A stretch of DNA of 64,000 nt from Photorhabdus heterorhabditis. Lineage in GTDB: Bacteria; Pseudomonadota; Gammaproteobacteria; Enterobacterales; Enterobacteriaceae. A program made the translations under genes and the position numbers. Numbering within the stretch: the first letter of the stretch is position 1; each line of letters opens with the position of its first letter. The stretch covers positions 225,787 to 289,786 of the forward strand of contig NZ_RCWA01000001.1 of the NCBI RefSeq assembly GCF_018448905.1, written 5' to 3'. Positions 7,507 through 42,329 of this stretch are shown here, in pieces. The notes under the pieces were generated by a model. It was given only the letters and a program-made list of their open reading frames with translations. It did no database searches and had not been told where the DNA came from.

Positions 7507-8076
7507 CAGTTTATTTCTTTCTTTTCTTCTTTTTATTTTCTACTTTCTTTACATGTTTATTTAACGGGATTATTTAATGGAATTATTTAACTGTTTCGTT
7601 AATATTTAGTCATATTTTCTTTTCTCAACTGCTTTTTTGTTCTTTTTTAGCTATTTTTCTTGGTCATTAGTAGGTGCCAACGTTTTTCGGTGTTTGTTTC
7701 AGATTGACAACTTGCCGAGCATCATTCATAGAAATTTTCATATTTCAGTTGTTACTCAATACTTGTGTTTGATTGCACAACCTTTGGTTATTTATTTTTC
7801 ATAAGAATTACTTATGATTGTCGGTTGGAATGTAGGTAATATCATTTTTTTAGATGTCATATTTTTTCCGGGTTAAACTTTTAACTTATCCTAAATTATA
7901 ACTAATCTGACAGGTTTTTGTTTTCGGGGGTTCAGATTCAGAGTTCTGCCATTTTTGTGGTTAATAAGGCTATAATGACGCCTTACCATCTGTCTCATCT
8001 ACTGAGATGGGTTTTTAATTGTCAGATATTCCATCTGACAAGCAATCTCTATCTCTGCTCTGGGGTCTTAAACCTA
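7507..8076. other. Intergenic stretch between hcp and rlmJ
   Basis: About 570 bases of T-rich sequence with no frame that looks coding. The open frame upstream of the rlmJ start (7918-8076) has no recognisable family sequence and no ribosome binding site. The rlmJ promoter is expected here but was not pinned down. Confidence 0.4.
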
Positions 8077-8919: not shown

Positions 8920-9030
8920 CTTTTAACAATGGAAGAAAGAGCCAGAACCATCACGACTACTTGATATTTTTTGCCATAATAGGCTTTCGGGTATTAACCC
9001 CCCTAAACTGATTAGATGGAAACGATCCAG

Positions 9031-10383
9031 ATGAGCAAACATTACGACTATATAGCGATTGGTGGTGGCAGCGGTGGCATTGCATCAATTAACCGTGCGG
9101 CTATGTACGGACAAAAATGTGCCCTGATTGAAGCTAAGGCATTAGGTGGAACTTGCGTCAATGTGGGGTGTGTACCAAAGAAAGTGATGTGGCATGCAGC
9201 ACAAATTGCTGAGTCTATTCACCAGTACGGGCCAGATTACGGCTTTGATACCACAGTTAACCACTTTAACTGGAAGACACTGATTGCCAGTCGTACTGCT
9301 TATATTGATCGTATTCACCAGTCTTATGAACGTGGTTTGGGTAACAATAAAGTTGATGTGATCCAAGGTTTCGCTCGTTTTGTTGATGCACATACTGTTG
9401 AAGTGAATGGTGAAGAAATCACCGCAGATCATATTTTGATTGCGACGGGTGGTCGTCCTATACGCCCTGATGTACCAGGTGTGGAATATGGTATTGATTC
9501 TGATGGCTTCTTTGAACTGACAGAGATGCCAAAACGGGTTGCGGTTGTTGGTGCGGGTTATATTGCGGTGGAAATTGCCGGCGTATTGTATGCACTTGGT
9601 AGTGAAACTCATCTGTTTGTGCGTCAACATGCGCCATTGCGCTCTTTTGACCCGATGGTTGTTGAAACATTATTGGAAATTATTAATACAGAAGGGCCTA
9701 CTTTACATACTGAATCTGTGCCAAAAGCAGTGATTAAAAATGCAGATGGTAGTCTGACTTTGCAACTGCAAAATGGCAAAGAGCAGACAGTTGATACCCT
9801 GATCTGGGCTATTGGTCGTGAACCGGCAATAGATAATCTGAATCTGTCAGTAACGGGTATTGAATTGAATGGAAAAGGCTATATTAAGGTTGATAAATAT
9901 CAGAATACCAATGTGAAAGGCATTTATGCTGTAGGTGACAATACGGGAGCGGTGGAGCTAACGCCTGTTGCAGTGGCCGCCGGTCGTCGCTTGTCTGAAC
10001 GCTTGTTTAATAATAAGCCGGAAGAGCATTTGGATTACACTAATATTCCAACCGTCGTATTCAGTCATCCACCGATTGGGACTGTGGGGTTAACTGAGCC
10101 GCAGGCGAAAGAGCAATTTGGCGAAGATCAGGTGAAAACATATCAATCTTCTTTCACTGCGATGTATACCGCTGTCACTCAACATCGCCAACCATGCCGG
10201 ATGAAACTAGTGTGTGTCGGACCGGAAGAGAAGATTGTTGGCATTCATGGTATCGGTTTTGGGATGGATGAAATGTTGCAAGGTTTTGCTGTTGCATTGA
10301 AGATGGGGGCAACTAAGAAAGACTTTGACAACACTGTGGCAATTCATCCAACTGCGGCGGAAGAGTTTGTCACGATGCGATGA
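9031..10383 (+). CDS. gor: Glutathione reductase
   Basis: A 450-residue NADPH-dependent flavoprotein that reduces glutathione disulfide, the same length as E. coli Gor. The N-terminal FAD-binding glycine motif (IAIGGGSGG), the redox-active [13 protein letters not shown] disulfide motif, the NADPH-binding [13 protein letters not shown] segment and the C-terminal [12 protein letters not shown] with the active-site His are all present. The ATG at 9031 (MSKHYDY) is preferred over 9016 because it matches the family N-terminus. It lies downstream of rlmJ, as in other enterics. It is complete, and a hairpin follows at 10436-10458. Confidence 0.97.
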
Positions 10384-29729: not shown

Positions 29730-30446
29730 GGGGCTGTCCTAGATAGCGATTATGTTTTTCCCTTAACCATTTGTTTTATAAAATATAATTTGTCTTTTAC
29801 ATCCGGTGTATTAAATCTCCACTCACATTCCTTGAGAAAGAGCTCAAAATGTTCCTTTGGTATGCCATTAAATTTACGCATATGACGTTTGGCTTGGTTC
29901 CAAAAGTTCTCTATCCCATTGATAGGGTTTTGACCATTTTTAGCGTCTACAAACTCCGTGCTATGGTTAATTCGATAGTGTTTAAAATCGGACACGTCCA
30001 GCACATCATCGCTGGCAAAATTGTCTGTGTAGACCAGGCTGTCAGGCTTAATTTTCGCCGTGATAATCGGAATCAAGGTATCGGATTTAGCGTTAGGTAT
30101 TAGGCGGGTGTAGACCTTAGCACTTCGCTTGAGAAGCCCGAAAACAGGGACTTTTCCGGCTGAACCTCGCCCGCGTTTTCCCTTACGTTTACCCCCGAAA
30201 CAGCTTTCGTCTATCTCGACTTCACCTTCAAACATGGAGTGTTCATCGACATAATCAGCGATAAGGACTCTGAGGCGGTGAAAATAGTAAGCTGAAGTCG
30301 TTTTGTTGATCCCCACTAACTCAGCCGCAGTGCGAGCTGTAGCCCCTGCCACAAAGAGCTCCTGAAGACGTTTTTGCTTGTATTGGCTAATCCGACTTTT
30401 TCTCATTTGGATATCCTAGGTCAAATAACTTATCTAGGACAGTCCC
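29730..30446 (-). mobile_element. IS1595-family insertion sequence, intact
   Basis: A 717-bp element bounded by 16-base terminal inverted repeats with one mismatch: left GGGGCTGTCCTAGATA at 29730-29745; right, read inward, GGGACTGTCCTAGATA at 30446-30431. It carries one intact transposase gene. The flanking octamers (29722-29729 and 30447-30454) share their central six bases, ATTATT, which could be an 8-bp target duplication, the size usual for IS1595, with drifted ends. It separates a LysE-type exporter from a tauA pseudogene. Confidence 0.88.
29750..30406 (-). CDS. IS1595 family transposase (ISXO2-like)
   Basis: A 218-residue transposase. An N-terminal helix-turn-helix (residues 15-45, GATARTAAELVGINKTTSAYY) precedes an ISXO2-type DDE/DDN domain: D66 in VEIDESCFGGKRKGKRGRG, D128 in VYTDNF, and the INGIENFWNQAKRHMRKFNG segment with the last catalytic residue region. 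It fills the element almost end to end and looks functional. It is the only complete transposase gene in the window. Confidence 0.9.
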   Translation of the reverse strand: MRKSRISQYKQKRLQELFVAGATARTAAELVGINKTTSAYYFHRLRVLIADYVDEHSMFEGEVEIDESCFGGKRKGKRGRGSAGKVPVFGLLKRSAKVYTRLIPNAKSDTLIPIITAKIKPDSLVYTDNFASDDVLDVSDFKHYRINHSTEFVDAKNGQNPINGIENFWNQAKRHMRKFNGIPKEHFELFLKECEWRFNTPDVKDKLYFIKQMVKGKT

Positions 30447-30529
30447 TATTATTCTTTTTTACTTTAGCAAATATCTACAACACTTATTCTGATGTACCTC
30501 GTCTTTAATTTTGACATTGGAGTGTTTAA

Positions 30530-31234
30530 GTGGGTAGATCCGCCCTTGTGGTTTATCTTTTTTTTCTGGCGTTCTTGCTTTTGGTTCCCGTTGTTCAGGC
30601 GAACAGTCAGCAAGTCACGATTGCTTATCAAACTTCACCAGAGCCGGCAAAAGTTGCTCAGTATAACGGCGATTTTGCCCGGCGATCAGGTGCTGATGTT
30701 CAATGGCGGAAATTTGACAGCGGTTCTGCGAGCGTTAGCTTCTGGTGATGTGCAGATAGGCAATATGGGTTCTAGTCCATTAGCGGTTGCTGCCAGCCAG
30801 AAATTGCTGGTAAAAATTTTTCTAATTGCTTCCCAGTTAGGGCAATCGGAAGCACTGATTGTTAATCAAAAACTCACTGAACCTTCTCAGCTTATCGGCA
30901 AACGAATTGCCGTTCCTTTCATTTCTACCGCTCACTACAGCCTGTTGGCTGCATTGCATTACTGGCAGATAGATCCAAGCTGATCAAGATTATTAATTTA
31001 CAACCACCAGCGATTGTTGCTGCATGGAAGCGTGGTGATATTGATGGAGCTTTTGTCTGGTTACCTGTCGTGAATGAATTAGCTGCAACGGGCCGTGTAC
31101 TGACCGATGCAGCATAAATTGCTCAATGGGGAGCGCCAACGCTGGACGTATGGGTTGTCCGTAATGATTTTGCCGAGCAACACACTCTGAGCTGGTTTAA
31201 GATGTTCTTGAAAAGTGTATTGGGTGAAAACTGA
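30530..31234 (+). pseudogene. tauA: tauA, taurine ABC transporter substrate-binding protein, frameshifted and truncated
   Basis: GTG at 30530, preceded by GGAG, opens a signal peptide and VTIAYQTSPEPAKVAQ, clear TauA sequence, up to FDSGS near 30725. A frameshift moves to another frame with RALASGDVQIGNMGSSPLAVAAS and IGKRIAVPFIST, ending at TGA near 30981. A second shift continues in the third frame as INLQPPAIVAAWKRGDIDG, which meets an in-frame TAA near 31116, then WGAPTLDVWVVRNDFAEQ and a stop at 31232. The last third of TauA and tauBCD are missing. The gene is dead but still well preserved in sequence. Confidence 0.88.
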
Positions 31235-31540
31235 TGATATTTGATTTCTCCTTAAATGCGATAGGGACCTTTCCATTCAGATTTAAAAAAATGAGAGAGA
31301 GAGTATAAAGATATCTATCCTGCCAAAGGAAAAAAAGTATCGAAATTACGTTTATATACCAGAAAAATATTCTTCCAGTTACAATAAATATTAACGGAAT
31401 AAAGTTACCTCCTAAAGTAGGTAACTTTTACTTACTTCATAAGATTCACTTGACAGCAAATTAATAGATTGTTAGAAACATTATTACATTTATTTTATAA
31501 ATGAAAATTTATTAATTAAGCCAAACTAAAAGGAATAGAG
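31235..31540. promoter_or_regulatory. Upstream region of the polyamine-type biosynthetic operon
   Basis: This A/T-rich stretch has no gene. A perfect 10-base hairpin at 31401-31428 (AAAGTTACCT, 8-base loop, AGGTAACTTT) is followed by TTACTTACTT. It could end read-through from the left or lie in the operon leader. The operon's promoter must be here or within the next 110 bases. AAAAGGAATAGAG before 31541 provides the ribosome binding site. Confidence 0.45.
31401..31428 (+). terminator. Ten-base perfect hairpin 113 bases before the operon start
   Basis: The stem AAAGTTACCT/AGGTAACTTT encloses an eight-base loop and is followed by T-rich sequence. Either an insulating terminator or a leader structure would fit; sequence alone cannot decide. 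Confidence 0.5.
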
Positions 31541-31927
31541 ATGCTACGTTCTTCCAGTGTTGGTTTTGCTGAGTATTCTTTTCTTGGAACACATGTTTTT
31601 GCTGAGTTCTACGGTGTGGATAAGTATTTACTAAATAATGAAAATGAACTGATAACAATTATGCGTCAGGCAGTAGAAGCTTCTGGAGCTACAATATTAA
31701 ATGTTATTTCCCATAAATTCGATCCTGAAGGAATGACGGCATTACTTTTACTTTCTGAATCTCATGCGTCAATCCATACTTATCCAGATCGTTCTGCAGC
31801 ATTCATAGATATATTTACCTGTGGTAATTGTGATCCTGAGACGTCAGTTTCTGAGCTAAAAAAATTGATGAATCCAGATGGATTAACTTACAAATGTATT
31901 GTTAGAGGAAACAATGAGTATGCTTAA
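31541..31927 (+). CDS. S-adenosylmethionine decarboxylase proenzyme (short, SpeH type)
   Basis: A 128-residue pyruvoyl-dependent SAM decarboxylase of the small Bacillus/Thermotoga type, not the long E. coli SpeD type. It makes decarboxylated SAM, the aminopropyl donor. The self-cleavage site is intact: Glu73-Ser74 with H79 and C94, spaced exactly as Ser63, His68 and Cys83 of the Thermotoga enzyme. It is the first gene of the operon and overlaps the next gene by 14 bases. A short-type enzyme in an enteric suggests acquisition by transfer together with the cluster, as a dedicated pathway copy. Confidence 0.92.
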   Translation: MLRSSSVGFAEYSFLGTHVFAEFYGVDKYLLNNENELITIMRQAVEASGATILNVISHKFDPEGMTALLLLSESHASIHTYPDRSAAFIDIFTCGNCDPETSVSELKKLMNPDGLTYKCIVRGNNEYA

Positions 31928-32780
31928 TAAAATTTTTGAGCCAATTGGTAACGGTGTTCAACGAGTTTGGGATTTGGAAAAAGTAATTTATCACAAACAT
32001 ACACCTTTCCAAGAAATGATAATTGCTAAGACCGCTCAAGGCATAAGTCTTTTTTGCAATAATGAAAGGCAAAGTGTTGAGGAATCTCAAATTATTTATC
32101 ATGAAGGACAAATTATCCCAGCAGCCTTGTTTTGTGGAAAAATAGATAAAGTGCTAATTGTAGGATCCAGTGAAGGTGTTATCAGTCAAATGGCCGTTGA
32201 ATTGGGGGCGAAAAAAGTAGTACATGTTGATATTGACAAGGAGTGCGTTGCTGCCTGTGCCAAATATCTTCCTTATGGTTATAGTCCGAACGATGTAAAA
32301 ACAGCATTAGAAAAAGATGGTCCTATCGAACTAATTATTGGAGACGGTTACCAATATATAGATGATGCCATAGAAAAAAATGAGAAATACGATATTGTTG
32401 TGCTGGACTTGCCTGACGAACAATATGAAATGGCACAACAAAATCGACTATATAGTATTAAGTTTAACAAAAAGATTGCTAAAATACTAACGCCAGAAGG
32501 TGTATTTATTTCACAAGCAGGGTGCTCAACTTATTGGAGAAATGAAACTCTAAAAAAATCAGTTGAAAGATTCAACTCTAGCTTCAAAACTACTGTTTTC
32601 TTTGAAATGGAAGAACAAAATTGGGTATGGTTAATTGGTGCAAATTTTCCCTGTGATGACATATCAGGGAGAATGTCTAAAAAACTCGAAAAATTATCTT
32701 ATCAGCCCAAGTTTATTGATAAGATGTCGATACTGAAATCTACAATCATACCGGTTTCCCTACGTAATAGTCAGGAGTGA
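31914..32780 (+). CDS. Spermidine-synthase-like aminopropyltransferase
   Basis: A 288-residue protein with the spermidine synthase fold: an N-terminal beta segment (about 1-70) and a Rossmann domain with VLIVGSSEGVISQMAV (SAM-type binding), an acidic HVDIDKEC, and IGDGYQYI. The substrate-site motif reads DLPDE followed by RLYSIKF, close to the DLPDP-type variants rather than the DSTDP of E. coli SpeE, so the acceptor amine may not be putrescine. ATG at 31914 is preceded by AGAGGA and overlaps the SAM decarboxylase gene. It presumably uses the donor made by that enzyme. Confidence 0.85.
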   Translation: MSMLNKIFEPIGNGVQRVWDLEKVIYHKHTPFQEMIIAKTAQGISLFCNNERQSVEESQIIYHEGQIIPAALFCGKIDKVLIVGSSEGVISQMAVELGAKKVVHVDIDKECVAACAKYLPYGYSPNDVKTALEKDGPIELIIGDGYQYIDDAIEKNEKYDIVVLDLPDEQYEMAQQNRLYSIKFNKKIAKILTPEGVFISQAGCSTYWRNETLKKSVERFNSSFKTTVFFEMEEQNWVWLIGANFPCDDISGRMSKKLEKLSYQPKFIDKMSILKSTIIPVSLRNSQE

Positions 32781-32783
32781 AGT

Positions 32784-33884
32784 ATGCAATTTCAACAGGA
32801 AGAGCCTTGTTATTATTCTAATCAAAGCAGCCCAGTGGAAGTCTATACAGAATGGGATCCTTTAGAAGAAGTAATCGTAGGAATTATTGACGACATTCGT
32901 ATTCCTGAATGGGATCTTGGTTTAGATGCAGTGATTCCGAAAAAATCCAAAAGTTTTTTTAAGCAAAATGCTGGAAAGCGCTTTCCAAAAGAGTTACTTG
33001 CACTAGCTAAAAAAGAGGTAGATATACTTGCTGATATTCTACGAAGTGAGGGTGTACGGGTAAGGAGACCTAATAAAGTTAATCACCATCAAACAATCAT
33101 GACTCCTCATTTTACTACTGGTGGAGGGTTTTATTCAGCTATGCCAAGAGACTGCCTTTTTGCTATTGGGAAGAAAATTATTGAAGTTCCTATGGCATGG
33201 CGTAGTCGCTATTTTGAAACTTTTGCCTTTAGAGAAATACTTAATGACTATTTCAGTAAAGGAGCTGAGTGGTTTGCTGCGCCGAAGCCAATGCTTAAAG
33301 ATAGTCTGTGGCACCCTAACCATGACTGCGAACAAGAAGTTCGCTTTAAGTCTGTTATAAATGAGCTTGAACCAATATTTGATGCGGCTGACTTTATGAA
33401 AATAGGGCGTGATATCATAGGGCAGCGCAGTCACGTAACTAACAATAAAGGCATAGAATGGTTGAGAAGGTTATTGGGAAAAGATTACCGAATTCATATT
33501 TATGAGTTTGATGACTCCTCACCTATGCACATTGATACTACGATTTTACCTTTGGCCCCAGGCCGTGTACTGATTAATAAAGCATGGGTTTCAAAGGTTC
33601 CTGCTCTCTTCCGAGATTGGGAAATCCTGACACCTCCCCCCTCAACTCTTAATGATGCTCATCCACTCTTCATGACATCAAAATGGATACATACAAATGT
33701 TCTGATGCTGGATGAAAAGACAGTTATTGTTGAGCAGGATGAAGAATTTCTGAAGGCAGCATTCCACAAATGGGGGTTCAAAACCATCCTCTGCCCATTT
33801 AAACATTTCCAAACTTTTGGTGGCTCATTTCATTGTGCAACTCTGGATGTCAAACGTAGTGGGAGTTTGAAAAGTTATGTCTAA
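32784..33884 (+). CDS. Arginine:glycine-type amidinotransferase
   Basis: A 366-residue member of the amidinotransferase family (AGAT, StrB1 and AmtA types), which moves the amidino group from arginine to an amine. The catalytic set is visible: D210 in IGRDIIGQRSHVTN, H249 in SPMHIDTTILPL, and Cys351 in FGGSFHCATLDVKRSG. In a polyamine cluster the acceptor is more likely a primary amine of a diamine, polyamine or omega-amino acid than glycine; that is inference. It starts 3 bases after the aminopropyltransferase stop and overlaps the next gene by 8 bases. Confidence 0.9.
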   Translation: MQFQQEEPCYYSNQSSPVEVYTEWDPLEEVIVGIIDDIRIPEWDLGLDAVIPKKSKSFFKQNAGKRFPKELLALAKKEVDILADILRSEGVRVRRPNKVNHHQTIMTPHFTTGGGFYSAMPRDCLFAIGKKIIEVPMAWRSRYFETFAFREILNDYFSKGAEWFAAPKPMLKDSLWHPNHDCEQEVRFKSVINELEPIFDAADFMKIGRDIIGQRSHVTNNKGIEWLRRLLGKDYRIHIYEFDDSSPMHIDTTILPLAPGRVLINKAWVSKVPALFRDWEILTPPPSTLNDAHPLFMTSKWIHTNVLMLDEKTVIVEQDEEFLKAAFHKWGFKTILCPFKHFQTFGGSFHCATLDVKRSGSLKSYV

Positions 33885-35265
33885 TGTTTATGACGTGAAG
33901 CAAGCTCATTGTAACATCCAATCTATTATAAACTATTCTCAAGTTGAACCACTCGGTGTAGAAAGCATTGAGAGGCAAACTGGAATGAGAGTACTGTGGG
34001 AAAGAGAATATTCTATGTTTTCCCAGCGCTTGACCCTTGATCAGGGAATTTTGGAACAATGGAAGTTAAAAAAACTACGGTCTTTGGTTGACTGGGCTTT
34101 TATTACCTCACCTTATTATCGTGACAAATATCAAAAACATGGCTACGAACTTGGCGCTATTCGTTCTTTTAAGGATTTTGAACAGTTACCAGTGATAACC
34201 AAAGACGATGTAATTAATAATTTCCCGCTGGGTATGCCTTCTCAGCAGTATGATCCGGAAAAATGTCGCTGGATGAGCAGTTCTGGCTCGTCAGGAAAAC
34301 AGGTGCAAATCATCTTGCCGCAAAAGCGTGCGAATTTGGACATATTATTTAAGTATCGTATGTTTGAGTTTATGTCGGGTAAGAAAATAGATCCGGCTCG
34401 CTGGATTTATAATATTCATTATTGCATGTGGTGGCATAGCTCGGTTCTTGGCAAATACCGTGTTTTTACTTTAAGCCAAGACTGCCCGGAATTTTATGCC
34501 TTGAAGCATATAAAAGCTATGCGTCCTCAGATTATATCATCCATTGGCAGCTATCTTGGAAAATTGGCAGCGCTGGGTGAACGATTAGATATATATGGTG
34601 TAGAACTAATTTCGACAAATTCAGAAACAACTACTCAGGAAGAGCGCTATCGCTATGAGGCGATCTTCAAAGTACCAGTACGTGACGAGTATTCTTCCGA
34701 AGAGCTTGACATCATGGCGATGCAATGTGTGGATAAGCATTATCATCTTGTTGAGGACGATGTACACCTTGAGGTGATTAACCGCGATGCTCAAGGGGTT
34801 GGCGATATTATAGGTACCGATTTGTGGAACGATGCTATGCCGATGATCCGTTATCAGCAAGGTGACTTATGTGAGCTTGATGATAGTCGAGAAGTATGTT
34901 CATGCGGCAGTCATTTTAGGAAAATCAGAAAGCTACATGGCCGTGCTGATCAGGGGTTAACCACCTTACATGGGAATACAATATCTCCCGGAAGTATTCT
35001 GGACGCAGTAGAGCGTTTTTTCTGTCGGGATGAGGCTAACATTGCTGAGTTTCGCGTGGTACAACTAGCTCCAGATCGTATAAATGTACTTTATGTGATC
35101 AAAAACGATTCTGTACAGCATGATGCCGGAATTTTTGACGCATTTCAGCATCATTTGAGCAATTTATTTTCCCATAAAGTTTATGTTCATCCAATTCGAA
35201 TGGAGCAGATCCCTAGGGAAAAAAGTTATAAAAGAAGGACGGTTATCAACAAATGCAAGACGTAA
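33877..35265 (+). CDS. PaaK-like AMP-forming ligase (phenylacetate-CoA ligase family)
   Basis: A 462-residue adenylate-forming enzyme of the PaaK/CapK-like group. Visible: the phosphate-binding SSSGSSGK at 134-141, DEYSSEE in the acyl-adenylate region, and YQQGDLCELDDS with an Asp for the ribose. A CSCG pair follows. It would activate a carboxylic acid as acyl-AMP, possibly as CoA ester; the acid is unknown. The last residues include KSYKRRTVINK, resembling the family's C-terminal Lys region. It overlaps both neighbours (8 and 13 bases), pointing to coupled translation. Confidence 0.82.
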   Translation: MSNVYDVKQAHCNIQSIINYSQVEPLGVESIERQTGMRVLWEREYSMFSQRLTLDQGILEQWKLKKLRSLVDWAFITSPYYRDKYQKHGYELGAIRSFKDFEQLPVITKDDVINNFPLGMPSQQYDPEKCRWMSSSGSSGKQVQIILPQKRANLDILFKYRMFEFMSGKKIDPARWIYNIHYCMWWHSSVLGKYRVFTLSQDCPEFYALKHIKAMRPQIISSIGSYLGKLAALGERLDIYGVELISTNSETTTQEERYRYEAIFKVPVRDEYSSEELDIMAMQCVDKHYHLVEDDVHLEVINRDAQGVGDIIGTDLWNDAMPMIRYQQGDLCELDDSREVCSCGSHFRKIRKLHGRADQGLTTLHGNTISPGSILDAVERFFCRDEANIAEFRVVQLAPDRINVLYVIKNDSVQHDAGIFDAFQHHLSNLFSHKVYVHPIRMEQIPREKSYKRRTVINKCKT

Positions 35266-36488
35266 CATTAAATACAATCCTGATTGTTTCCTGTGAACCG
35301 GACATAATGGAAAAAACTACCGAGTTGGCAGCACAATTTGCGCTGTCAGATATCCGTTTTGTTTTTCTTATAGAGGATTTTACCCACACTACGCATAATT
35401 ATCGAAGTGAAGAACACTATATAGTGCGTGATTTTTCTGTACATTCTGATGTTATGGATGCTATTGATAAGATTATTATTCGTCATGAAGTATCAGCCGT
35501 AATTTCCAGCGATGAATTCTCTGTTTTCGTTGCCGCCAGTGCGAGGGAGAAGATGAAAATACCTGGAATGACATGCACTCAAGCCAGGAGATTTCGTGAT
35601 AAAAAAATGATGAAGCAAGTGGCTGAACAGGGAGGAATTGCTACTCCAAAGGAGTTTACTCTTGATAATATCAGGGATGACAGCACGATTTTCCCTATAG
35701 TGATAAAACCGCGCTCTCTGGCGGGGTCGGTTGGTGTTGAAATTATTGCTACTGCTGAATGCCTTGTCAACTTAACATCCCCTTGGAATGACAGCTACCA
35801 TGATATGGATGCGGGGCAGTTTATTATTGAGAAATACAACCCACAGGATATTTTCCATATTGACTGTATAGTTTTATCCGGCCGCATTAACTTCATTTCG
35901 GTAAGCGAATATCAAGGCAAACCTATTGACTTTCTACAAGGACAGCCACTAGGAAGCTTCTCGGTAGAAGAAAGTTACATAGAGAAATATTGGCACCCTT
36001 TTACAGAGAGAGTGCTTTCAGCATTTGTTGCTCCAGATGGAGTTTATCACATTGAGGCCTTTGGCAATTCAGGTAATGTCCCTGAATTGCTTGAAATAGC
36101 ATATAGGCCCGGAGGAGCGGGGATTGTTGACATTATTCAGAAAGTTTATGGATTGGATCTTCGTCTGATTCATTTAGCTGCTCAACTTGGGATTATTAAC
36201 GGGATAAATTACCAATCAAGAGCAGATGCGTTTGCATACCTTATTTTCCCTAAAGAACACACAGCTGTAGAGACTAAGTTTGTGACTGACCTCATTTTGC
36301 CCAACTTGGAAAGTTTACCGACTTTGATTAAATATATGATCCCCTCAGTGGGCGATGTTGCCACAGGAGAATTCTATTGCCACAAAGATTGCCTAGGTAT
36401 GTTCATTTTTAGTGGGAATCGGGAAATGGTCTATCAAGATTTTCAATGTGTGATTAATAATTACATAGTACAAACAGGATTTAAATGA
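35253..36488 (+). CDS. ATP-grasp carboxylate-amine ligase
   Basis: A 411-residue ATP-grasp protein of the type that joins amino acids or acids to amines (carnosine synthase / BtrJ-like). Residues 1-110 form a pre-ATP-grasp Rossmann-like part. K152 in VIKPRSLAGSVG and the E-x-x-x-R-x-G-G motif at 281-288 (EIAYRPGG) mark the ATP and Mg site. The acyl phosphate mechanism would form an amide or peptide bond in the product. It ends in TGA placed immediately before the ATG of the ABC ATPase gene. Substrates are unknown. Confidence 0.85.
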   Translation: MQDVTLNTILIVSCEPDIMEKTTELAAQFALSDIRFVFLIEDFTHTTHNYRSEEHYIVRDFSVHSDVMDAIDKIIIRHEVSAVISSDEFSVFVAASAREKMKIPGMTCTQARRFRDKKMMKQVAEQGGIATPKEFTLDNIRDDSTIFPIVIKPRSLAGSVGVEIIATAECLVNLTSPWNDSYHDMDAGQFIIEKYNPQDIFHIDCIVLSGRINFISVSEYQGKPIDFLQGQPLGSFSVEESYIEKYWHPFTERVLSAFVAPDGVYHIEAFGNSGNVPELLEIAYRPGGAGIVDIIQKVYGLDLRLIHLAAQLGIINGINYQSRADAFAYLIFPKEHTAVETKFVTDLILPNLESLPTLIKYMIPSVGDVATGEFYCHKDCLGMFIFSGNREMVYQDFQCVINNYIVQTGFK

Positions 36489-37508
36489 ATGAATAGCCCT
36501 CTTATCGAAGTTAATAACGTTTCGAAAATATATCGGTCAAAAGAAAGTGGCTATGGCGTAAAGGAGAAATTAATTGGGATTTTTAAACCAACTTTTAGTG
36601 ATTATCAAGCATTAAGCGACATTAGCTTTACCCTATTAGCGGGGAAATCGTTGGCTATACTTGGTCCAAATGGTGCTGGTAAATCAAGCTTGATAAAAAT
36701 TCTTGCCGGAGTGCAGGCTCCTGATCAAGGAAAAGTTAGCGTATTGGGAGTGGATCCTTATAAAGTAAAAGGAAAATTATTTAGGCAACTGGGTGTTGTC
36801 TTTGGTCATAAGAATTGTTTGTGGTGGGATTTACCATTAATAAATAGCTTAGATATGGTTAGTAAAATTTACCGTATTGAAAGTTATTCATTCAAAAAAG
36901 AACAAGCTAAGATTTTTGAGTTGCTAAACATCCACCATATTATTAATAAGCCTGTTCGTCTTTTAAGTTTGGGGGAAAGAGTTAAGGGAGAATTGGCTTT
37001 TAATCTGCTTTTTAAACCTCGTGTTCTCTTTCTTGATGAACCAACCATTGGGTTAGATATCAATGCTAAACATGAGATCCGCGAATTGTTGAGCACACTC
37101 AAAAGTGAAGATAATATAGGTTTTATTATCACTAGCCATGATATGGGAGATATTGAGGGATATGTGGATAACATCTCCTTGTTACACCGAGGAAAACAAA
37201 AATTTTACGGGGATCTTGCCTCACTTAAAACAATTTCTACTCCATTAATAAAAGTGAATATTAACTGTGATAGTAAAACACAGGCTAAGGCTCTGATTGA
37301 AAAAGTAACATCACTCTCTATAAGATCAGGAGTTTTAATTGAGCACATCCGATTCAATGAAGAAGCAGAAGATGTTGAGATCTCAGTTTCGCAAGATCAA
37401 TATACCATATTTATTAAAGCATTAGTTGTAGATGTTCAGTGTGCTTTTTCGGTTTCAACCCCATCATTGGAGGAGATACTACGTGCACGATTTAAAGAAT
37501 TTTCATAA
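36489..37508 (+). CDS. ABC transporter ATP-binding protein
   Basis: A 339-residue ABC ATPase of the drug/natural-product exporter type. Walker A GPNGAGKSS, a slightly divergent signature LSLGERVKGEL, Walker B VLFLDEPTIGLD and the switch His in TSHDM are all present. A C-terminal extension of about 100 residues follows, as in ATPases serving ABC-2 permease pairs. It overlaps the first permease gene by 26 bases. With the two permeases it forms the likely exporter of the cluster product. Confidence 0.93.
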   Translation: MNSPLIEVNNVSKIYRSKESGYGVKEKLIGIFKPTFSDYQALSDISFTLLAGKSLAILGPNGAGKSSLIKILAGVQAPDQGKVSVLGVDPYKVKGKLFRQLGVVFGHKNCLWWDLPLINSLDMVSKIYRIESYSFKKEQAKIFELLNIHHIINKPVRLLSLGERVKGELAFNLLFKPRVLFLDEPTIGLDINAKHEIRELLSTLKSEDNIGFIITSHDMGDIEGYVDNISLLHRGKQKFYGDLASLKTISTPLIKVNINCDSKTQAKALIEKVTSLSIRSGVLIEHIRFNEEAEDVEISVSQDQYTIFIKALVVDVQCAFSVSTPSLEEILRARFKEFS

Positions 37509-38316
37509 TTATCTTTTGGCGATGATCCTATTTTCTAAGAATGGTATGCTAACTATAATTAATGATAGATCGATGTTTTTTACTGATTTTGTAATGGGAA
37601 CTCTGTCGCCATTTATTATTCAATATCTTTTATGGAGTAATATTTTTTCGCAACAATCTGAAAGTATTAATGGGTTTACTTTAAACGACATGATGTATTA
37701 CTACGGTTTTGCGCTAGTTATTTCAAGGCTTAATAATGGATATGATTTAATCCAAACTTTTTCACGACATGTACAAAATGGTGAGCTTGAAGTATATATA
37801 ACAAAACCTTATAGCTATCTTTCACAAAGATTATTTACATTTTTCGGCGAGAGTATTTTATATCTTCTTCCATTGTTTATTGTTTTCTTAATTAAATTTA
37901 TAACAAATTACCCGGTTGAAAAAGGTCTGTCCGTATTTATTATATCTGTGTTGATGATCATATCAGTTATTGTTCTTTCTCAATTGCTATGTTTTTTTCT
38001 TTCATTCAGTATTGCAATTATGAGTTTTTGGGTTATTGAATATAATATCCTGCTTTCATTTATCATTCTTAGCTCATCATTGTTTGGAGGAGTTCTTTTA
38101 CCCCCCTCATTTTGGCCTGATTGGATACTACCACTTATGAAATATAATCCATTTCGCTTTATTATATCTGCCCCAGCAGAGTTTTTTGTGAAAATGAATT
38201 CTTCCCTTTTCAAAGAGATAATCATTGGTGGAATATGCTACCTTTTATTTTTTTATGCGTTTATTCATTCAATGTGGAAAAAGGGTATAAAGAATTATAA
38301 CGGAGCAGGAGGATAA
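37483..38316 (+). CDS. ABC-2 type permease, first subunit
   Basis: A 277-residue integral membrane protein with about six hydrophobic segments (clusters near residues 40-65, 95-120, 130-155, 160-190, 195-225 and 240-262). It resembles the ABC-2 permeases of the DUF990/ABC_membrane_6 group. GTG at 37483 is chosen because GGAGGAG lies just ahead of it; the longer open frame to 37432 runs inside the ATPase gene. It is paired with the next gene, 1 base away. Together they probably form a heterodimeric exporter. Confidence 0.83.
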   Translation: MHDLKNFHNYLLAMILFSKNGMLTIINDRSMFFTDFVMGTLSPFIIQYLLWSNIFSQQSESINGFTLNDMMYYYGFALVISRLNNGYDLIQTFSRHVQNGELEVYITKPYSYLSQRLFTFFGESILYLLPLFIVFLIKFITNYPVEKGLSVFIISVLMIISVIVLSQLLCFFLSFSIAIMSFWVIEYNILLSFIILSSSLFGGVLLPPSFWPDWILPLMKYNPFRFIISAPAEFFVKMNSSLFKEIIIGGICYLLFFYAFIHSMWKKGIKNYNGAGG

Positions 38317-38317
38317 T

Positions 38318-39088
38318 ATGAAAACTATTTCTCTTTTTATTAAAATGAATATCAATCGGCAACTTGCCTATAAAAAAAACCTTTTTGGAGAATTTATACT
38401 TTCATCGTCATATTACCTAATCCAATTCATATTTATTGATCAAATTTCCTCTCTATCTGAAGGTATTGGAGGCTATAAAAACGAAGATTTTCATCTCATA
38501 TTCTTGGTTTTTATCCTACTTGGAGTTGCGATAAGTATATTTACTCATTCTATTGAAGAATTTTTCAACAAGGTAGCTAGTGGAAGAATAGAACCTTATT
38601 TAGTTAAACCTATATCTATCTGGATATTGATATTATTTGGTTGGTCAAAACCCTTAAATATAATTATGTTTATTTTCTTGGCATTTTTTGCATTATTTTT
38701 CTCTTCCTTACCTATGGTAACAAAAGATGCTATTCAGTGGGCAGAGTTCATTGTCTCTATTATATGCATGTTCATCATTAACTTATCCTTTTTCATTATT
38801 TTTAATTTTTTTACATTCATAAATCATAGGAAAATGCCAGTGGATTACTTTCATGAGATGATATATGAACTTTCCATTGTTCCTGTCAATTTTTTTCCTC
38901 ATGGTTTAGTTAAATACCTCCTTTTTGCATTGCCGATGGCATTCTCTGCTTCATTGCCTGTGTCATTTTTCTTGGGAAGGAACGACTGGAATATAGGTTA
39001 TTTAATTATTAGTACAGTTTTTTTTATGTTGGGAACTTTGTTTTTTTATCGATGGGGAATTAGAAAGTTCAATGGCTTAGGAGGGTAA
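38318..39088 (+). CDS. ABC-2 type permease, second subunit
   Basis: A 256-residue integral membrane protein with about six hydrophobic segments, similar in layout to the preceding permease and ending in the same type of KFNGLGG tail (the first ends NYNGAGG). That shared ending marks the pair as ABC-2 permeases of one transporter. It lies 1 base after its partner and 1 base before the desaturase gene, with GGAGG upstream of each. Substrate is unknown, presumably the product of the operon. Confidence 0.83.
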   Translation: MKTISLFIKMNINRQLAYKKNLFGEFILSSSYYLIQFIFIDQISSLSEGIGGYKNEDFHLIFLVFILLGVAISIFTHSIEEFFNKVASGRIEPYLVKPISIWILILFGWSKPLNIIMFIFLAFFALFFSSLPMVTKDAIQWAEFIVSIICMFIINLSFFIIFNFFTFINHRKMPVDYFHEMIYELSIVPVNFFPHGLVKYLLFALPMAFSASLPVSFFLGRNDWNIGYLIISTVFFMLGTLFFYRWGIRKFNGLGG

Positions 39089-39089
39089 C

Positions 39090-39983
39090 ATGAACACTTA
39101 TTTGATCTCTAAAATCAAGGAAGAAAATAGTCGAAAGAGCCTTTTTAAGGCTTTATTGGTTTTTTTTAATAATATTATTTTTCCATGGATTCTAGTTTTT
39201 ATATTTAGTTGGTTAGTTTCCATTAGCATTTGGTTATTTATTGTTTTTCCCTTACTGTCTTTTTTTATCGGCACTAGGTTCAGAGCAGTGAATAATATGT
39301 CACATGAGTGCTTTCATTATTCATTTTGTCGTTCAAAAAAGATAAATGACATTTTTGGTGAGTTATTTTCCATAATTGAATTTTCAAAATTTAAATCAAT
39401 AAGGAGGGAACATCTTAGTCACCATAAATTTTTAGGTGATATGGATAAAGATCTTGATTTTATTGGCATAAGAAATTATGGATTGCATAAAAAACTTTGT
39501 CGCAAGAGATTAATTAGACACTTAAAACAAACATTCCTTTTGAAGCAACTTAAAAATACATTTTTCTTCGTAATATATGATAACGATGCACCTAAATGGG
39601 CTAATACCTTACGTATAATGTATATTTTTTTACTTGCAATCATTATTTTTTTATATCCGTTGTATACTTTTATGTTCTTGCTCTTACCTTACTGTTATTT
39701 TTATCAAATACAGAAACACATGACAGACGTTATAGATCATGGTGGCTTACTTAATAACATTGATCCAATGAGCAAAACGCGAAATTTTATCATTAAGAAT
39801 AAAATAATAAGTGCAATTCTGTTGCCTCGTTACGATGGTTATCACCTTGTACACCATCTATTTCCCTGGATATGTGTTGAAAACCATGAGCGGGCACATG
39901 AAATTATGATGGAAAACGAGATATATCGTCAAAAAAAACACGGGGCATGGGAACAGGTAAAGGAATGGTTAAAAGATGAATAA
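39090..39983 (+). CDS. Membrane fatty-acid-desaturase-type di-iron enzyme
   Basis: A 297-residue membrane protein with the three histidine clusters of the desaturase/hydroxylase superfamily: H72-x3-H76 (HECFH), H108-x2-HH112 (HLSHH) and H252-x2-HH256 (HLVHH). Two hydrophobic hairpins lie at about 22-60 and 173-205. Such enzymes desaturate or hydroxylate acyl chains, amines or alcohols using O2. Here it could modify an acyl group or a polyamine backbone; that is inference. It overlaps the next gene by 8 bases. Confidence 0.88.
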   Translation: MNTYLISKIKEENSRKSLFKALLVFFNNIIFPWILVFIFSWLVSISIWLFIVFPLLSFFIGTRFRAVNNMSHECFHYSFCRSKKINDIFGELFSIIEFSKFKSIRREHLSHHKFLGDMDKDLDFIGIRNYGLHKKLCRKRLIRHLKQTFLLKQLKNTFFFVIYDNDAPKWANTLRIMYIFLLAIIIFLYPLYTFMFLLLPYCYFYQIQKHMTDVIDHGGLLNNIDPMSKTRNFIIKNKIISAILLPRYDGYHLVHHLFPWICVENHERAHEIMMENEIYRQKKHGAWEQVKEWLKDE

Positions 39984-41265
39984 AAAATTTTATCATGTAC
40001 AGCCATTACACTTCGAGCCTATACATTTTTCTAGATACCGACAGAAGGCTGTTGCATTAGGTATAATCGATCCCTCTTGGGAGTGGTTGCTGACACCTCT
40101 TGAATACGACCCCAAAATATTGGCTGACTTGCAAGATCGCTTGGCACGTATAGAGACTCTCATGGAGAGTTTGTTCTTACATTACCGTCCGTCGATAAGA
40201 GAAATAATGCTCGAATTGGGGATTCCCAAATGGATGTATGATTTCATATTGCTTGATAACAGCGATGTACCGTTTCCCCTGCGCTGGGATGTGATTTGTA
40301 CTGGTGACACTTGGCAGATCATTGAGGTAAATACAGGCTACTGCTTAGGAGGATTGAATGGATATGCAATCAATTCTATTCGTTCCAATTTTTACGAGCT
40401 AACCTGTCCAGATAACCCGATAACGCCTATACAAAATCCGTTCAGAGAAATGAGGCGAAACTTATCTACGATTGTGAAAAAACATGAGATTGTCCCAATC
40501 ATTGAAACGCCTGAAGGTTATGGAAAATATGGTTTTTACTTGAAGAATTTTGTTAAGTTAATGAACCAAAAAGGCAACGTTCAGTTTGTTGCTGGTACCC
40601 TACGCGATTTTGATTTTACTGACTCGCAGGCAATGTTCAAAGGCCATTCAGTGAATGCCTTTATACCAATGTTCAATCTATACGAAGTTGCTGGAGATAT
40701 CTCATTGATGACGTCATACCGTCAGGCACTGCTTACTAAGAGAATTACTTCAGTATTAGGATTCCGTGAAGTACTGTATTCAAATAAAGGCTTCATTGCT
40801 TGGTTGGTTAAAAATATTGGATGCATGACACAACCGGAAGAAAGAGACTACTTAAAATCCCTTTTTCCAATAACAAACATATTGACGAGACAAAATTGCG
40901 AGGTTTTCTGGCAAGGGGATTATGTGTTGAAACCTGCGGAAGGTTATGGTGGGGCGGGTATAGTCTGTAGTTGGCTCTGCGAACCTTTGGTGTGGCACAG
41001 GTCACTGCAACGAGCATTAGATTCAGGCAAATGTTGGATCGTACAAAAGCGTGTGTATGGTGAGATGTTACCCATGCACTCCATTGATAGGAATGATCAG
41101 ATTAAGCAAGGGAATGCTTCTGTTGTACATGGCTTTATTACCTTAAGGGGCAAAATGATAGGTACATTAACACGTGCGGCTATAGGAATTTCCAATCCAG
41201 GAGTAATTAATGCTCATCAAGGGGCAGCTTTCGGATTGACTGGACTGGATGTACCTAATACTTAG
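39976..41265 (+). CDS. Glutathionylspermidine-synthase-like ATP-grasp ligase
   Basis: A 429-residue protein with a circularly permuted ATP-grasp look. The acidic segment WQIIEVNTGYCLGGLNG (113-129) resembles the FEFN/EVN motif of glutathionylspermidine-synthase and related amide ligases. YVLKPAEGYGGAGIV (K319) gives the nucleotide-binding Lys and Gly loop. It would join a carboxylate to an amine, plausibly a polyamine amine given its neighbours. It is a second, unrelated amide ligase in the same operon. The stop at 41263 merges with a strong AGGAGG for the next small gene. Family assignment is moderate. Confidence 0.7.
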   Translation: MNKKFYHVQPLHFEPIHFSRYRQKAVALGIIDPSWEWLLTPLEYDPKILADLQDRLARIETLMESLFLHYRPSIREIMLELGIPKWMYDFILLDNSDVPFPLRWDVICTGDTWQIIEVNTGYCLGGLNGYAINSIRSNFYELTCPDNPITPIQNPFREMRRNLSTIVKKHEIVPIIETPEGYGKYGFYLKNFVKLMNQKGNVQFVAGTLRDFDFTDSQAMFKGHSVNAFIPMFNLYEVAGDISLMTSYRQALLTKRITSVLGFREVLYSNKGFIAWLVKNIGCMTQPEERDYLKSLFPITNILTRQNCEVFWQGDYVLKPAEGYGGAGIVCSWLCEPLVWHRSLQRALDSGKCWIVQKRVYGEMLPMHSIDRNDQIKQGNASVVHGFITLRGKMIGTLTRAAIGISNPGVINAHQGAAFGLTGLDVPNT

Positions 41266-41276
41266 GAGGGCAAGTT

Positions 41277-41525
41277 ATGTATAGTAAGATCTGGCTATGT
41301 GATAAATGTGGTAAAACGTTGGGTTTCGGCAATTATCCTCCTGATGATGGTTCTGCATTTATTTGCGTGTATACCTAGGGCGGCAAGCACAAGCAGTTAA
41401 ACATATCGATCTGCAAAATGTGCTTTATTAGTGTATTTAGTAATTACGTTAACTCCAACATTGAAATGTTTTCACCAAAACAAGATACTCAGTTTCACCA
41501 TGTAATATTCAAAAGAAAAAGATAA
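41277..41525 (+). pseudogene. Small double-CxxC protein interrupted by an in-frame TAG
   Basis: ATG at 41277 stands 7 bases after a perfect AGGAGG (41264-41269). It reads a 33-residue peptide with CDKC (C8, C11) and stops at TAG 41376-41378. The same frame stays open for a further 48 codons with CKMC (C46, C49) and ends at a TAA that overlaps the next gene's ATG by one base (TAATG, 41523-41527). So the intended product is probably an 81-82 residue two-CxxC zinc-ribbon-like protein. Either TAG is a nonsense mutation, or the stop is read through, or only the short peptide is made. Confidence 0.62.
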
Positions 41526-42061
41526 TGAACGTATATAATAAAATAGTACCAGACGAATTTGATGTACCATTATTGGCATATGGCAATGGCTTTATTTTAC
41601 AGCCATTAAGCCCGAAATACGCCAATATAGACTATGAAGCCGTGATGGAGAGCCGACCGATTTTAAAAGATATCTTTTCTGACGACTGGCCAGATGATAT
41701 CAAAAGTTGGGAAGATAACTTGCGTTATATTGAAGAAGATTATAGCGATTTCCAACAACGAATTGGTTTCTCTTATATTATTCTTGATCCTTCGGAATCT
41801 CGTTGCCTTGGGTGTGTATATATATTCCCCTCACTTTTTGAGGGATATGATGTAGCTATTTACTACTGGTTACATATTAATATCCTGAATTCAGCACTAG
41901 CTTATGAAATAGAAACTTTCATTCGTAAGTGGGTGCAAGAACATTGGTGCATACCACACCCTGCTTATCCTGGGAGAGACATACCTTGGCTTGAGTGGCT
42001 GCAACGAAAAAGGAAGACTTTTGCTGGCACTATTGCAAATAGCACAGATGTCAGCAAATAG
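41525..42061 (+). CDS. GNAT-like N-acetyltransferase
   Basis: A 178-residue protein with a GNAT-like core. The segment FSYIILDPSESRCLGCVYIFPSLFEGYDVAIYYWL (split across residues 82-117) resembles beta4 of the acetyl-CoA fold, followed by helices. The classical R/Q-x-x-G-x-G/A loop is not obvious, so activity is uncertain. Its ATG overlaps the TAA of the preceding CxxC frame, making it the last gene of the operon. It might acetylate a product amine or give self-protection; both are inference. Confidence 0.6.
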   Translation: MNVYNKIVPDEFDVPLLAYGNGFILQPLSPKYANIDYEAVMESRPILKDIFSDDWPDDIKSWEDNLRYIEEDYSDFQQRIGFSYIILDPSESRCLGCVYIFPSLFEGYDVAIYYWLHINILNSALAYEIETFIRKWVQEHWCIPHPAYPGRDIPWLEWLQRKRKTFAGTIANSTDVSK

Positions 42062-42066
42062 TATAT

Positions 42067-42090
42067 TTAACCCCATCATCTTGGGGTTTC
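42067..42090 (+). terminator. Weak hairpin after the biosynthetic operon
   Basis: A short stem (AACCCC with GGGGTT) around an eight-base loop is followed by TTCTT, just after the last operon gene. The stem is short and the T tail broken, so it is only a candidate. Confidence 0.4.
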
Positions 42091-42130
42091 TTGGAGAAAC
42101 GAGCAATGTTGTATGCTAGCGAAACCCATA

Positions 42131-42329
42131 TCAACTAAACAACCACCTACTTAAAGTAGCAACTTCCTTTAATATCCTGATTTCAAAGGATTCGCATGTC
42201 TGCCGTACTAACTCACGTACTCAGCTCTCGACTTCTCCATGTCAGCACCTTGCATCTGTATTTCGTTACCCACACCAACAAATAGTATTCAATCTGAAAT
42301 ACCGTGTGGCTGTCATATCTATAATCCAT
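42131..42329 (-). pseudogene. Remnant of an IS200/IS605-type TnpA gene
   Basis: On the minus strand an ATG at 42329 reads MDYRYDSHTVFQIEYYLLVW, followed by VTKYRCKVL, the unmistakable N-terminus of IS200/IS605 Y1 transposases. The frame closes at TGA near 42214. In another frame it resumes as RELVRQTCESFEIRILKEVA and stops at 42131. The remaining C-terminal half with the catalytic Tyr is missing. It borders the right side of the biosynthetic operon and points to past mobile-element activity there. Confidence 0.78.

What the first reader, a model, noticed from the sequence alone, without database searches (positions are those of the whole stretch)
31541..42061. Unrecognised polyamine-guanidine-amide biosynthesis and export operon
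About twelve plus-strand genes, nearly all overlapping or within 11 bases of each other, combine SAM decarboxylase, an aminopropyltransferase, an amidinotransferase, an AMP-forming ligase, an ATP-grasp ligase, an ABC exporter of three genes, a membrane di-iron desaturase, a glutathionylspermidine-synthase-like ligase, a CxxC protein and a GNAT-like enzyme. Families are read from motifs. The inference is a dedicated polyamine or aminopropylated amine, guanidinylated, joined to one or two acids and exported. I do not recognise this set as a known pathway, and no NRPS or PKS is needed. Products of this kind (guanidino-polyamine amides) can be antibacterial or immunosuppressive.
Basis: partly seen in the sequence, partly recalled or inferred. 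Interest (0 to 1): 0.92.

Follow-up and report, generated by a model that had tools for sequence, protein, structure and literature searches.

The report
Phevamine-like polyamine operon in Photorhabdus
An insect-pathogenic Photorhabdus carries a compact, horizontally moving twelve-gene operon that probably makes and exports a guanidine-capped polyamine amide, built around relatives of the enzymes that plant pathogens use to make the immune suppressor phevamine A, but with several extra steps and an unknown product.

Summary
The operon is real: twelve co-directional genes (31541-42061), spaced within 13 bases or overlapping, except a 146-base gap left because a small CxxC gene is cut short here. 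The amidinotransferase is HsvA-like (PDB 5wpi, E=6.4e-200; 74% to the Pantoea hsv copy), and the ATP-grasp gene is 50%/46% identical to the two Pantoea hsv ligases. HsvABC makes phevamine A, a suppressor of plant immunity. Here only one such ligase exists in the genome. The operon adds a second SAM decarboxylase and a divergent aminopropyltransferase, a PaaK-like ligase, a remote permuted ATP-grasp-like ligase, a di-iron desaturase/hydroxylase, an ABC-2 exporter and an acetyltransferase-like gene. It occurs in 3 of 13 Photorhabdus genomes, each time beside murP/murQ sequence, and is 98-100% identical to one relative where flanks are about 85-97%: a recently exchanged block. I read it as an expanded branch of the hsv family that probably makes and exports a guanidino-polyamine amide. 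The product is unknown; I found no mention of it in the papers searchable here.

The parts
31252..42139 (+). Transferable unit: upstream region, twelve genes and hairpin; the stretch shared with the G002 copy
   Evidence: blastn to G002 contig C182 begins and ends here, apart from short murP/murQ pieces
31541..31927 (+). S-adenosylmethionine decarboxylase, small (B. subtilis) type; makes the aminopropyl donor
   Evidence: TIGR03330 106.5 bits over cut-off 75.65; PF02675 109.9 bits. The genome's other speD, beside speE, is the E. coli type (478 bits)
31914..32780 (+). Divergent aminopropyltransferase
   Evidence: PF01564 62.3 bits; SpeE equivalog 81 vs 249.55 bits; best solved relatives 7xif, 3anx/1uir and thermospermine synthase; 26% to the genome's canonical SpeE
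32784..33884 (+). HsvA-type polyamine amidinotransferase
   Evidence: PDB 5wpi HsvA, full length, E=6.4e-200; 74.3% to the Pantoea stewartii plasmid copy; motifs FDAADF, MHID, FHC present
33877..35265 (+). PaaK/F390-synthetase-like adenylate-forming ligase
   Evidence: NCBIfam relatives, all below cut-offs; PDB 4r1l E=3.2e-17; 33% to a Bartonella plasmid ligase next to an ATP-grasp gene
35253..36488 (+). HsvB/HsvC-type ATP-grasp amino-acid ligase
   Evidence: 50% and 46% to the two Pantoea hsv ATP-grasp proteins over nearly full length; L-amino acid ligases are the closest solved structures; PF13535 25.7 bits, just under cut-off 27
36489..37508 (+). ABC exporter ATPase (DrrA-like)
   Evidence: PF00005 83.4 bits; TIGR01188 160.5 bits, below its cut-off 312.45
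37522..38316 (+). ABC-2 permease 1 (start inferred; the mechanical ORF starts at 37432)
   Evidence: PF06182 69.5 bits
38318..39088 (+). ABC-2 permease 2
   Evidence: PF06182 78.2 bits
39090..39983 (+). Membrane di-iron desaturase/hydroxylase; nearest NCBIfam model is the arginine hydroxylase GntB, well below its cut-off
   Evidence: PF00487 99.4 bits; GntB model 98.6 bits vs cut-off 380; His boxes HECFH, HLSHH, HLVHH
39976..41265 (+). Remote circularly permuted ATP-grasp (glutathionylspermidine-synthase-like) ligase
   Evidence: No Pfam hit itself; a profile with three distant homologues (19-24%) aligns to two GSP_synth proteins, hhalign probability 91.5; D105, E117, N119, K319, Q357 invariant
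41277..41378 (+). Small CxxC protein, cut short by a premature stop in this genome
   Evidence: 33 aa here, 80 aa in L011 and L012
41525..42061 (+). GNAT-like acyltransferase, last gene
   Evidence: 15 plasmid homologues, 28-40% identical; 5 annotated N-acetyltransferase, 1 twin-arginine signal protein, 2 hypothetical, 7 without annotation; no Pfam or NCBIfam match
42069..42088 (+). Hairpin after the last gene, possible terminator (unproven)
   Evidence: -10.9 kcal/mol stem, z -1.09, 27 of 200 shuffles fold as well; not listed by the consensus terminator scan

Best explanation
This is a self-contained, horizontally exchanged biosynthesis-and-export operon, an expanded relative of the hsv (phevamine A) pathway. 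Proposed order: SpeD makes decarboxylated SAM. The divergent aminopropyltransferase builds a dedicated polyamine, probably not plain spermidine, since the genome has a canonical speED elsewhere. The HsvA-type enzyme moves an amidino group from arginine to one end. The HsvB/C-type ATP-grasp ligase couples an amino acid to the other end. The PaaK-like ligase activates a second, perhaps aryl or branched, acid, which is joined directly or through the GNAT-like enzyme, while the permuted ATP-grasp-like ligase adds a further amide. The di-iron enzyme desaturates or hydroxylates the scaffold, and the ABC-2 transporter exports the product. Shown here: the gene set, its homologies, conservation and exchange. 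Inferred: every reaction, the order, and the target (a host-directed immune or signalling modulator, by analogy with phevamine A).
For: Amidinotransferase is HsvA-like over its full length (5wpi; 74.3% to the Pantoea stewartii copy beside a type III secretion cluster; a passage of PMC3879358 places the hsv operon in that strain, linked to its T3SS). The neighbouring ATP-grasp is 50%/46% to the two Pantoea ligases. hsvABC makes phevamine A (passages of PMC13123061, and PMC8303149); spermidine is required for it (passage of PMC9120772). Polyamine supply genes lie in the operon although canonical speE and E. coli-type speD, both over their cut-offs, are elsewhere in the genome. Exporter genes. 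Ten of 11 genes have dN/dS 0.06-0.28 against L012. The block is shared and exchanged as a unit.
Against: Only one HsvB/C-type ligase is found in the genome at E<=1e-20, so it cannot be the phevamine A pathway as known. The second-ligase and GNAT assignments are remote, and AlphaFold models of both were useless (pLDDT 30 and 42). In this genome the CxxC gene is cut short, and in the G012 (P. australis) copy the amidinotransferase is split in two, so the pathway may be decaying in some strains. The first permease has dN/dS 0.66 against L012; against L011 both permeases and the desaturase are 0.69-1.31, on dS of only about 0.006. Close relatives of the full set were not found outside Photorhabdus, in sampled searches. 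No product is known.
Confidence: 0.7

Rival explanations
1. It makes phevamine A itself or a trivial congener; the extra genes only supply spermidine and export the product.
For: HsvA-like and HsvB/C-like proteins are present; SpeD and aminopropyltransferase could raise spermidine.
Against: Phevamine operons carry two HsvB/C ligases; here there is one in the whole genome at E<=1e-20. Two further ligase-type genes and a di-iron enzyme are not needed for phevamine A. The aminopropyltransferase is only 26% identical to the genome's canonical SpeE.
Confidence: 0.1
2. A spergualin- or edeine-like guanidino-polyamine antibiotic directed at competing microbes rather than at a host.
For: Same chemical logic (guanidine, polyamine, amide), with no NRPS in the operon. 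The di-iron enzyme and extra ligases would fit a hydroxylated guanidino acid (structures recalled, no call).
Against: The closest enzymes are those of host-directed phevamine. The one search for spergualin with 'biosynthetic gene cluster' listed seven papers, none titled as describing such a cluster; I did not open them. I recognised no self-resistance gene other than the exporter.
Confidence: 0.15
3. A degenerating or non-functional cluster kept by chance on a mobile block.
For: CxxC gene cut short here; amidinotransferase split in G012; present in only 3 of 13 genomes; three genes with dN/dS 0.69-1.31 against L011 on very few changes; an IS1595-family transposase gene lies just upstream.
Against: Eleven of 12 genes are open in the window, and 10 of 11 measured are at dN/dS 0.06-0.28 against L012; the breaks differ between strains and are few; draft assemblies can hold errors.
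Confidence: 0.12

Closest known systems
hsvABC / phevamine A pathway (Erwinia, Pantoea stewartii, Pseudomonas syringae)
   Same: HsvA-type amidinotransferase (74% to the Pantoea copy) next but one to an HsvB/C-type ATP-grasp ligase (50%/46%); polyamine-based chemistry
   Different: One HsvB/C ligase instead of two; own SpeD and aminopropyltransferase, PaaK-like ligase, permuted ATP-grasp-like ligase, di-iron enzyme, exporter and GNAT-like gene; insect-pathogen genus; beside murPQ, whereas the Pantoea operon lies beside a type III secretion cluster
GntB (guanitoxin arginine hydroxylase) and related membrane di-iron enzymes
   Same: Same superfamily and three His boxes; GntB is the best NCBIfam model for gene 9
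Glutathionylspermidine synthase / YgiC-type circularly permuted ATP-grasp
   Same: Remote profile similarity over 284 columns and conserved acidic, Lys and Gln positions of the ATP-grasp kind
   Different: No significant Pfam match; the genome's two GSP_synth-domain proteins lie elsewhere
Spergualin and edeine (guanidino-polyamine amides; recalled)
   Same: Predicted chemical type

Membership tests
hsv / phevamine A pathway | HsvA polyamine amidinotransferase | tested here: met
   5wpi HsvA E=6.4e-200, full length; homology only, activity not assayed
hsv / phevamine A pathway | Two HsvB/HsvC ATP-grasp ligases | tested here: not met
   One match in the whole genome at E<=1e-20
hsv / phevamine A pathway | Control by HrpL / linkage to a type III secretion cluster | not tested
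   No HrpL-box search and no T3SS search made; the flanking genes identified are LysE-type, IS1595 transposase, a tauA remnant, murP and murQ
hsv / phevamine A pathway | Product phevamine A | not testable with these tools
   Needs LC-MS
SAM decarboxylase, B. subtilis type (TIGR03330) | Score over curated cut-off | tested here: met
   106.5 vs 75.65 bits
Spermidine synthase SpeE (TIGR00417) | Score over curated cut-off | tested here: not met
   81 vs 249.55 bits, against 376 bits for the genome's canonical SpeE; so a divergent aminopropyltransferase
GntB arginine hydroxylase (NF041365) | Score over curated cut-off | tested here: not met
   98.6 vs 380 bits
Phenylacetate-CoA ligase PaaK (TIGR02155) | Score over curated cut-off | tested here: not met
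   71 vs 646.3 bits
Glutathionylspermidine synthase (PF03738) | Pfam match over cut-off | tested here: not met
   None for gene 10; only remote profile similarity
GNAT N-acyltransferase | Pfam or NCBIfam GNAT match | tested here: not met
   No match; 5 of 15 plasmid homologues are annotated N-acetyltransferase
Spergualin / edeine biosynthesis | Homologous gene cluster | not testable with these tools
   No reference cluster sequence at hand; one text search listing only

The most novel reading that the evidence does not exclude
Photorhabdus has turned the plant-immune-suppressor chemistry of phevamine A into an animal-directed compound: an aryl- or acyl-capped, oxidised guanidino-polyamine resembling the acylpolyamines of wasp and spider venoms (a recalled analogy), that blunts insect immunity or neural signalling, made by a transferable operon with an amide-forming permuted ATP-grasp enzyme of a new family.
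Probability: 0.18. Interest if true: 0.88.

Novelty: new variant of a known kind. Interest (0 to 1): 0.64.

Why it matters
It would link a plant-pathogen immune suppressor to an insect-pathogenic symbiont of nematodes, give a genetically compact route (no NRPS or PKS) to guanidino-polyamine amides, and add uncharacterised enzymes (a permuted ATP-grasp-like ligase, a GntB-like oxygenase, a divergent aminopropyltransferase). It also predicts a product that a single gene deletion and LC-MS could reveal.

Tried and rejected
Considered and rejected: plain phevamine A (one ligase missing); a guanitoxin cluster (GntB model far below cut-off); chance clustering of unrelated genes (kept as a block in three genomes).

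Led nowhere: AlphaFold of gene 10 (pLDDT 30) and gene 12 (pLDDT 42), so no fold search was made. Direct PDB and Pfam searches of gene 10. The promoter scan found 42 sites against 43.9 expected; the terminator scan found 12 against 7.2 (sd 2.4) but not the hairpin after the last gene. Megablast of the operon against plasmids: no match.

Searches of other genomes, misses included: gene 10 in 3 of 59 relatives, own included, all three of the same genus, and in 4 of 398 phylum genomes, own included, the other three weak (E 2e-6 to 4e-4); gene 5 in 3 of 394 order genomes, own included, the other two 31-32% and partial; gene 3 in 1 of 369 class genomes at 1e-100, own only; gene 4 in 1 of 345 order genomes at 1e-40, own only; gene 9 in 2 of 384 order genomes at 1e-15, own included, the second 27%. 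These are samples, so other carriers may exist. The genome-contig scan with gene 10 works from short exact peptide patterns: 13 stretches matched, 2 encoded a relative, both Photorhabdus. Plasmid tblastn: gene 3, 45 records; gene 10, 1 record at 23.8%; gene 5, 102 records, best three Pantoea; gene 9, 22 records, best 30-31%; gene 4, 29 records, best 33% Bartonella; aminopropyltransferase, 25 records, 21-28% in the 20 listed; gene 12, 15 records.

dN/dS: one search skipped gapped pairs (AMT and ATP-grasp against L011, PaaK-like and desaturase against L012); three of these were then done by codon alignment, the split amidinotransferase of L011 was left out, and the CxxC gene was not measured. 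The first permease was measured from the mechanical start 37432.

Papers: O'Neill 2018 and Shanker 2017 are not held. What I cite comes from passages found in PMC13123061, PMC8303149, PMC9120772, PMC10017717, PMC3879358, PMC13317450, PMC12833800, PMC2922099 and PMC12283262; in PMC13185094 the only match was a reference. I read no paper whole.
Full report
What is there. The window lies on contig C1 of a 5.05-Mb genome of the same genus as G002 and G012. These two appear to be Photorhabdus sp. CRCIA-P01 and P. australis DSM 17609, since their contigs have the same lengths as those of L012 and L011 (12439 and 25492 bases). Twelve genes on the plus strand from 31541 to 42061 are spaced -14, 3, -8, -13, 0, 13, 1, 1, -8 and 11 bases, then 146 bases before the last gene, because the CxxC gene ends early here. 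In the two relatives that gene is 80 codons long and overlaps the last gene by one base.

Families. SpeD is over its curated cut-off (106.5 vs 75.65 bits). The aminopropyltransferase passes Pfam but not the SpeE equivalog (81 vs 249.55). The ABC ATPase, both ABC-2 permeases and the FA_desaturase pass Pfam; the ATP-grasp gene is just under (25.7 vs 27). The desaturase has three His boxes. Its best NCBIfam model is GntB, an arginine hydroxylase, but at 98.6 bits against a cut-off of 380, so it is a relative and not GntB. The PaaK-like gene has no Pfam match and is below every equivalog cut-off. Its closest plasmid relative, on a Bartonella kosoyi plasmid, is 33% identical and also sits beside an ATP-grasp gene, itself 26% identical over 219 positions.

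The known core. The amidinotransferase has no Pfam match at E<=0.001 but matches the solved structure of HsvA (5wpi) over all 366 residues at E=6.4e-200, against about 1e-99 to 1e-98 for arginine:glycine amidinotransferase (1jdx) and SxtG. It is 74.3% identical to a Pantoea stewartii plasmid protein that is followed by two ATP-grasp-type genes beside a type III secretion cluster. A passage of PMC3879358 says the hsv operon is present in P. stewartii DC283 and linked there to its type III secretion genes. The window's ATP-grasp protein is 50% and 46% identical to those two. Passages of PMC13123061 and PMC8303149 name the set hsvABC and its product phevamine A, which suppresses the polyamine-linked oxidative burst of plants; PMC9120772 says spermidine is required for it. 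The title of Shanker 2017, seen in a reference list, calls HsvA a polyamine amidinotransferase. That phevamine A joins phenylalanine, valine and a modified spermidine is recalled from the 2018 abstract, which I could not open.

What differs. The genome has one HsvB/C-type ligase at E<=1e-20, not two. The operon has in addition a PaaK-like ligase and gene 10. Gene 10 has no Pfam hit. Aligned with the L012 copy and three distant homologues (19-24% identical), it keeps D105, E117, N119, K319 and Q357. That profile of five sequences matches a two-sequence profile of the genome's GSP_synth-domain proteins with hhalign probability 91.5, E=8.8e-7. One homologue itself shows a weak GSP_synth hit (E=7e-4) and another weak circularly permuted ATP-grasp hits; the third shows only other ATP-grasp families, weakly. 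This supports a permuted ATP-grasp ligase but does not prove it. Structure prediction failed.

Dedicated polyamine. The genome has a canonical speE (376 bits on TIGR00417) beside an E. coli-type speD (478 bits on TIGR03331) on another contig, so the operon's pair is an addition. The operon aminopropyltransferase is 26% identical to that SpeE. Its best solved relatives are 7xif, 3anx/1uir and thermospermine synthase. At the loop where the canonical SpeE reads DCTDPIGPGEGLF it reads DLPDEQYEMAQQNRLY, closer to the DL-D...LY pattern of 7xif and 3anx. I infer a substrate or product other than plain spermidine; the activities of those relatives are recalled, not tested.

Selection. Against L012, dN/dS is 0.06-0.28 for 10 of 11 genes and 0.66 for the first permease, where dS is only 0.011. 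Against L011, whose measured genes are 98.8% or more identical in DNA, 7 of 10 genes are at 0-0.25, and the two permeases and the desaturase at 0.69-1.31, on dS of about 0.006, too few changes to read. The CxxC gene was not measured. The G012 copy has its amidinotransferase split into two frames. Both breaks may be real or assembly errors.

Mobility. The operon marker (gene 5) is in 3 of 13 genomes of the genus. In 5 of the 10 genomes without it the LysE-type gene lies next to murP with no operon between: 24-45 bases apart in L027, L029, L032 and L035, and 210 bases in L034. The other 5 (L025, L028, L030, L031, L033) show no lysE match in the 1.5 kb at hand and stay undetermined. In G002 that junction is also empty (L036, 55 bases), while its operon lies on another contig between pieces of murQ and murP. 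The match to that contig covers window 31252-42139, that is, the operon with its leader and end. Against G012, 500-base blocks from 30500 to 42000 are 98-100% identical; left flank blocks are 90.0-96.8% and those over murPQ and beyond 84.6-95.3%, with 97.2% in the block that spans the right edge. This is a recently exchanged block. A 0.7-kb segment with an IS1595-family transposase gene (29750-30406) is present in the window but not in G012. G+C falls to 0.295-0.318 over the permease and desaturase genes, against 0.39-0.47 between 24 and 31 kb and between 42 and 46 kb.

How it most likely works. See Best explanation. Shown: genes, homologies, selection, exchange. Inferred: each chemical step, their order and the biological target. 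Confidence in 'guanidino-polyamine amide, made and exported' is 0.7; in a host-directed role about 0.5.

Novelty. The core is known (hsv). I found no description of this combination in the papers I could search: searches gave no paper, and one search gave two, whose matching passages do not describe it. The library holds only open-licence papers, so a published report elsewhere is possible. I file it as a new variant of a known kind.

Noticed in passing
L037 (own genome C1:1-18000) 4059-5192, 7927-8883, 8894-9799: A second amidinotransferase, 53% identical to the operon's, about 2.7 kb from a FA_desaturase-family protein (not close to the operon's) and a WelO5/isoleucine-dioxygenase-like oxygenase, with a serine-hydrolase-type gene between and others after. 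Each of the 13 Photorhabdus genomes searched has a copy 52-53% identical to the operon's enzyme. It may be a separate guanidine-metabolite locus of the genus.
   Followed up: partly
window 29750-30406: IS1595-family transposase gene between the LysE-type gene and the operon, absent at this site from the close relative G012.
   Followed up: partly
window 30492-31230: Remnant of a taurine-type ABC substrate-binding protein gene (partial NCBIfam match), disrupted here; it shares the high identity of the operon block in G012 (from 30449) but is not in the G002 match.
   Followed up: partly
L012 / G002 contig C182 ends and G002 contig C154 end: Pieces of murQ and murP flank the operon while another murP copy with its lysE neighbour lies on C154; both matches stop at the same murP position (window 43425), suggesting a partial murPQ duplication around the operon.
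   Followed up: partly
G004:C4:15836-16246 (L058): A fragment 57% identical to residues 230-366 of the operon's amidinotransferase in a genome without the operon marker: perhaps a relic of another hsvA-like gene.
   Followed up: no
L018 10664-14318 (Bartonella kosoyi plasmid pTLV-1): ATP-grasp, PaaK-like ligase and enolase-family genes, with an aminotransferase, oxidoreductases and a MATE exporter on the opposite strand: apparently another small ligase-based metabolite cluster on a plasmid.
   Followed up: no
L007 4333-9464 (Pantoea sp. JZ29 plasmid): Upstream of the hsv genes lies another compact set: tRNA-ligase-related protein, TauD-type oxygenase, ATP-grasp, MFS transporter and Asp/Glu racemase.
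   Followed up: no
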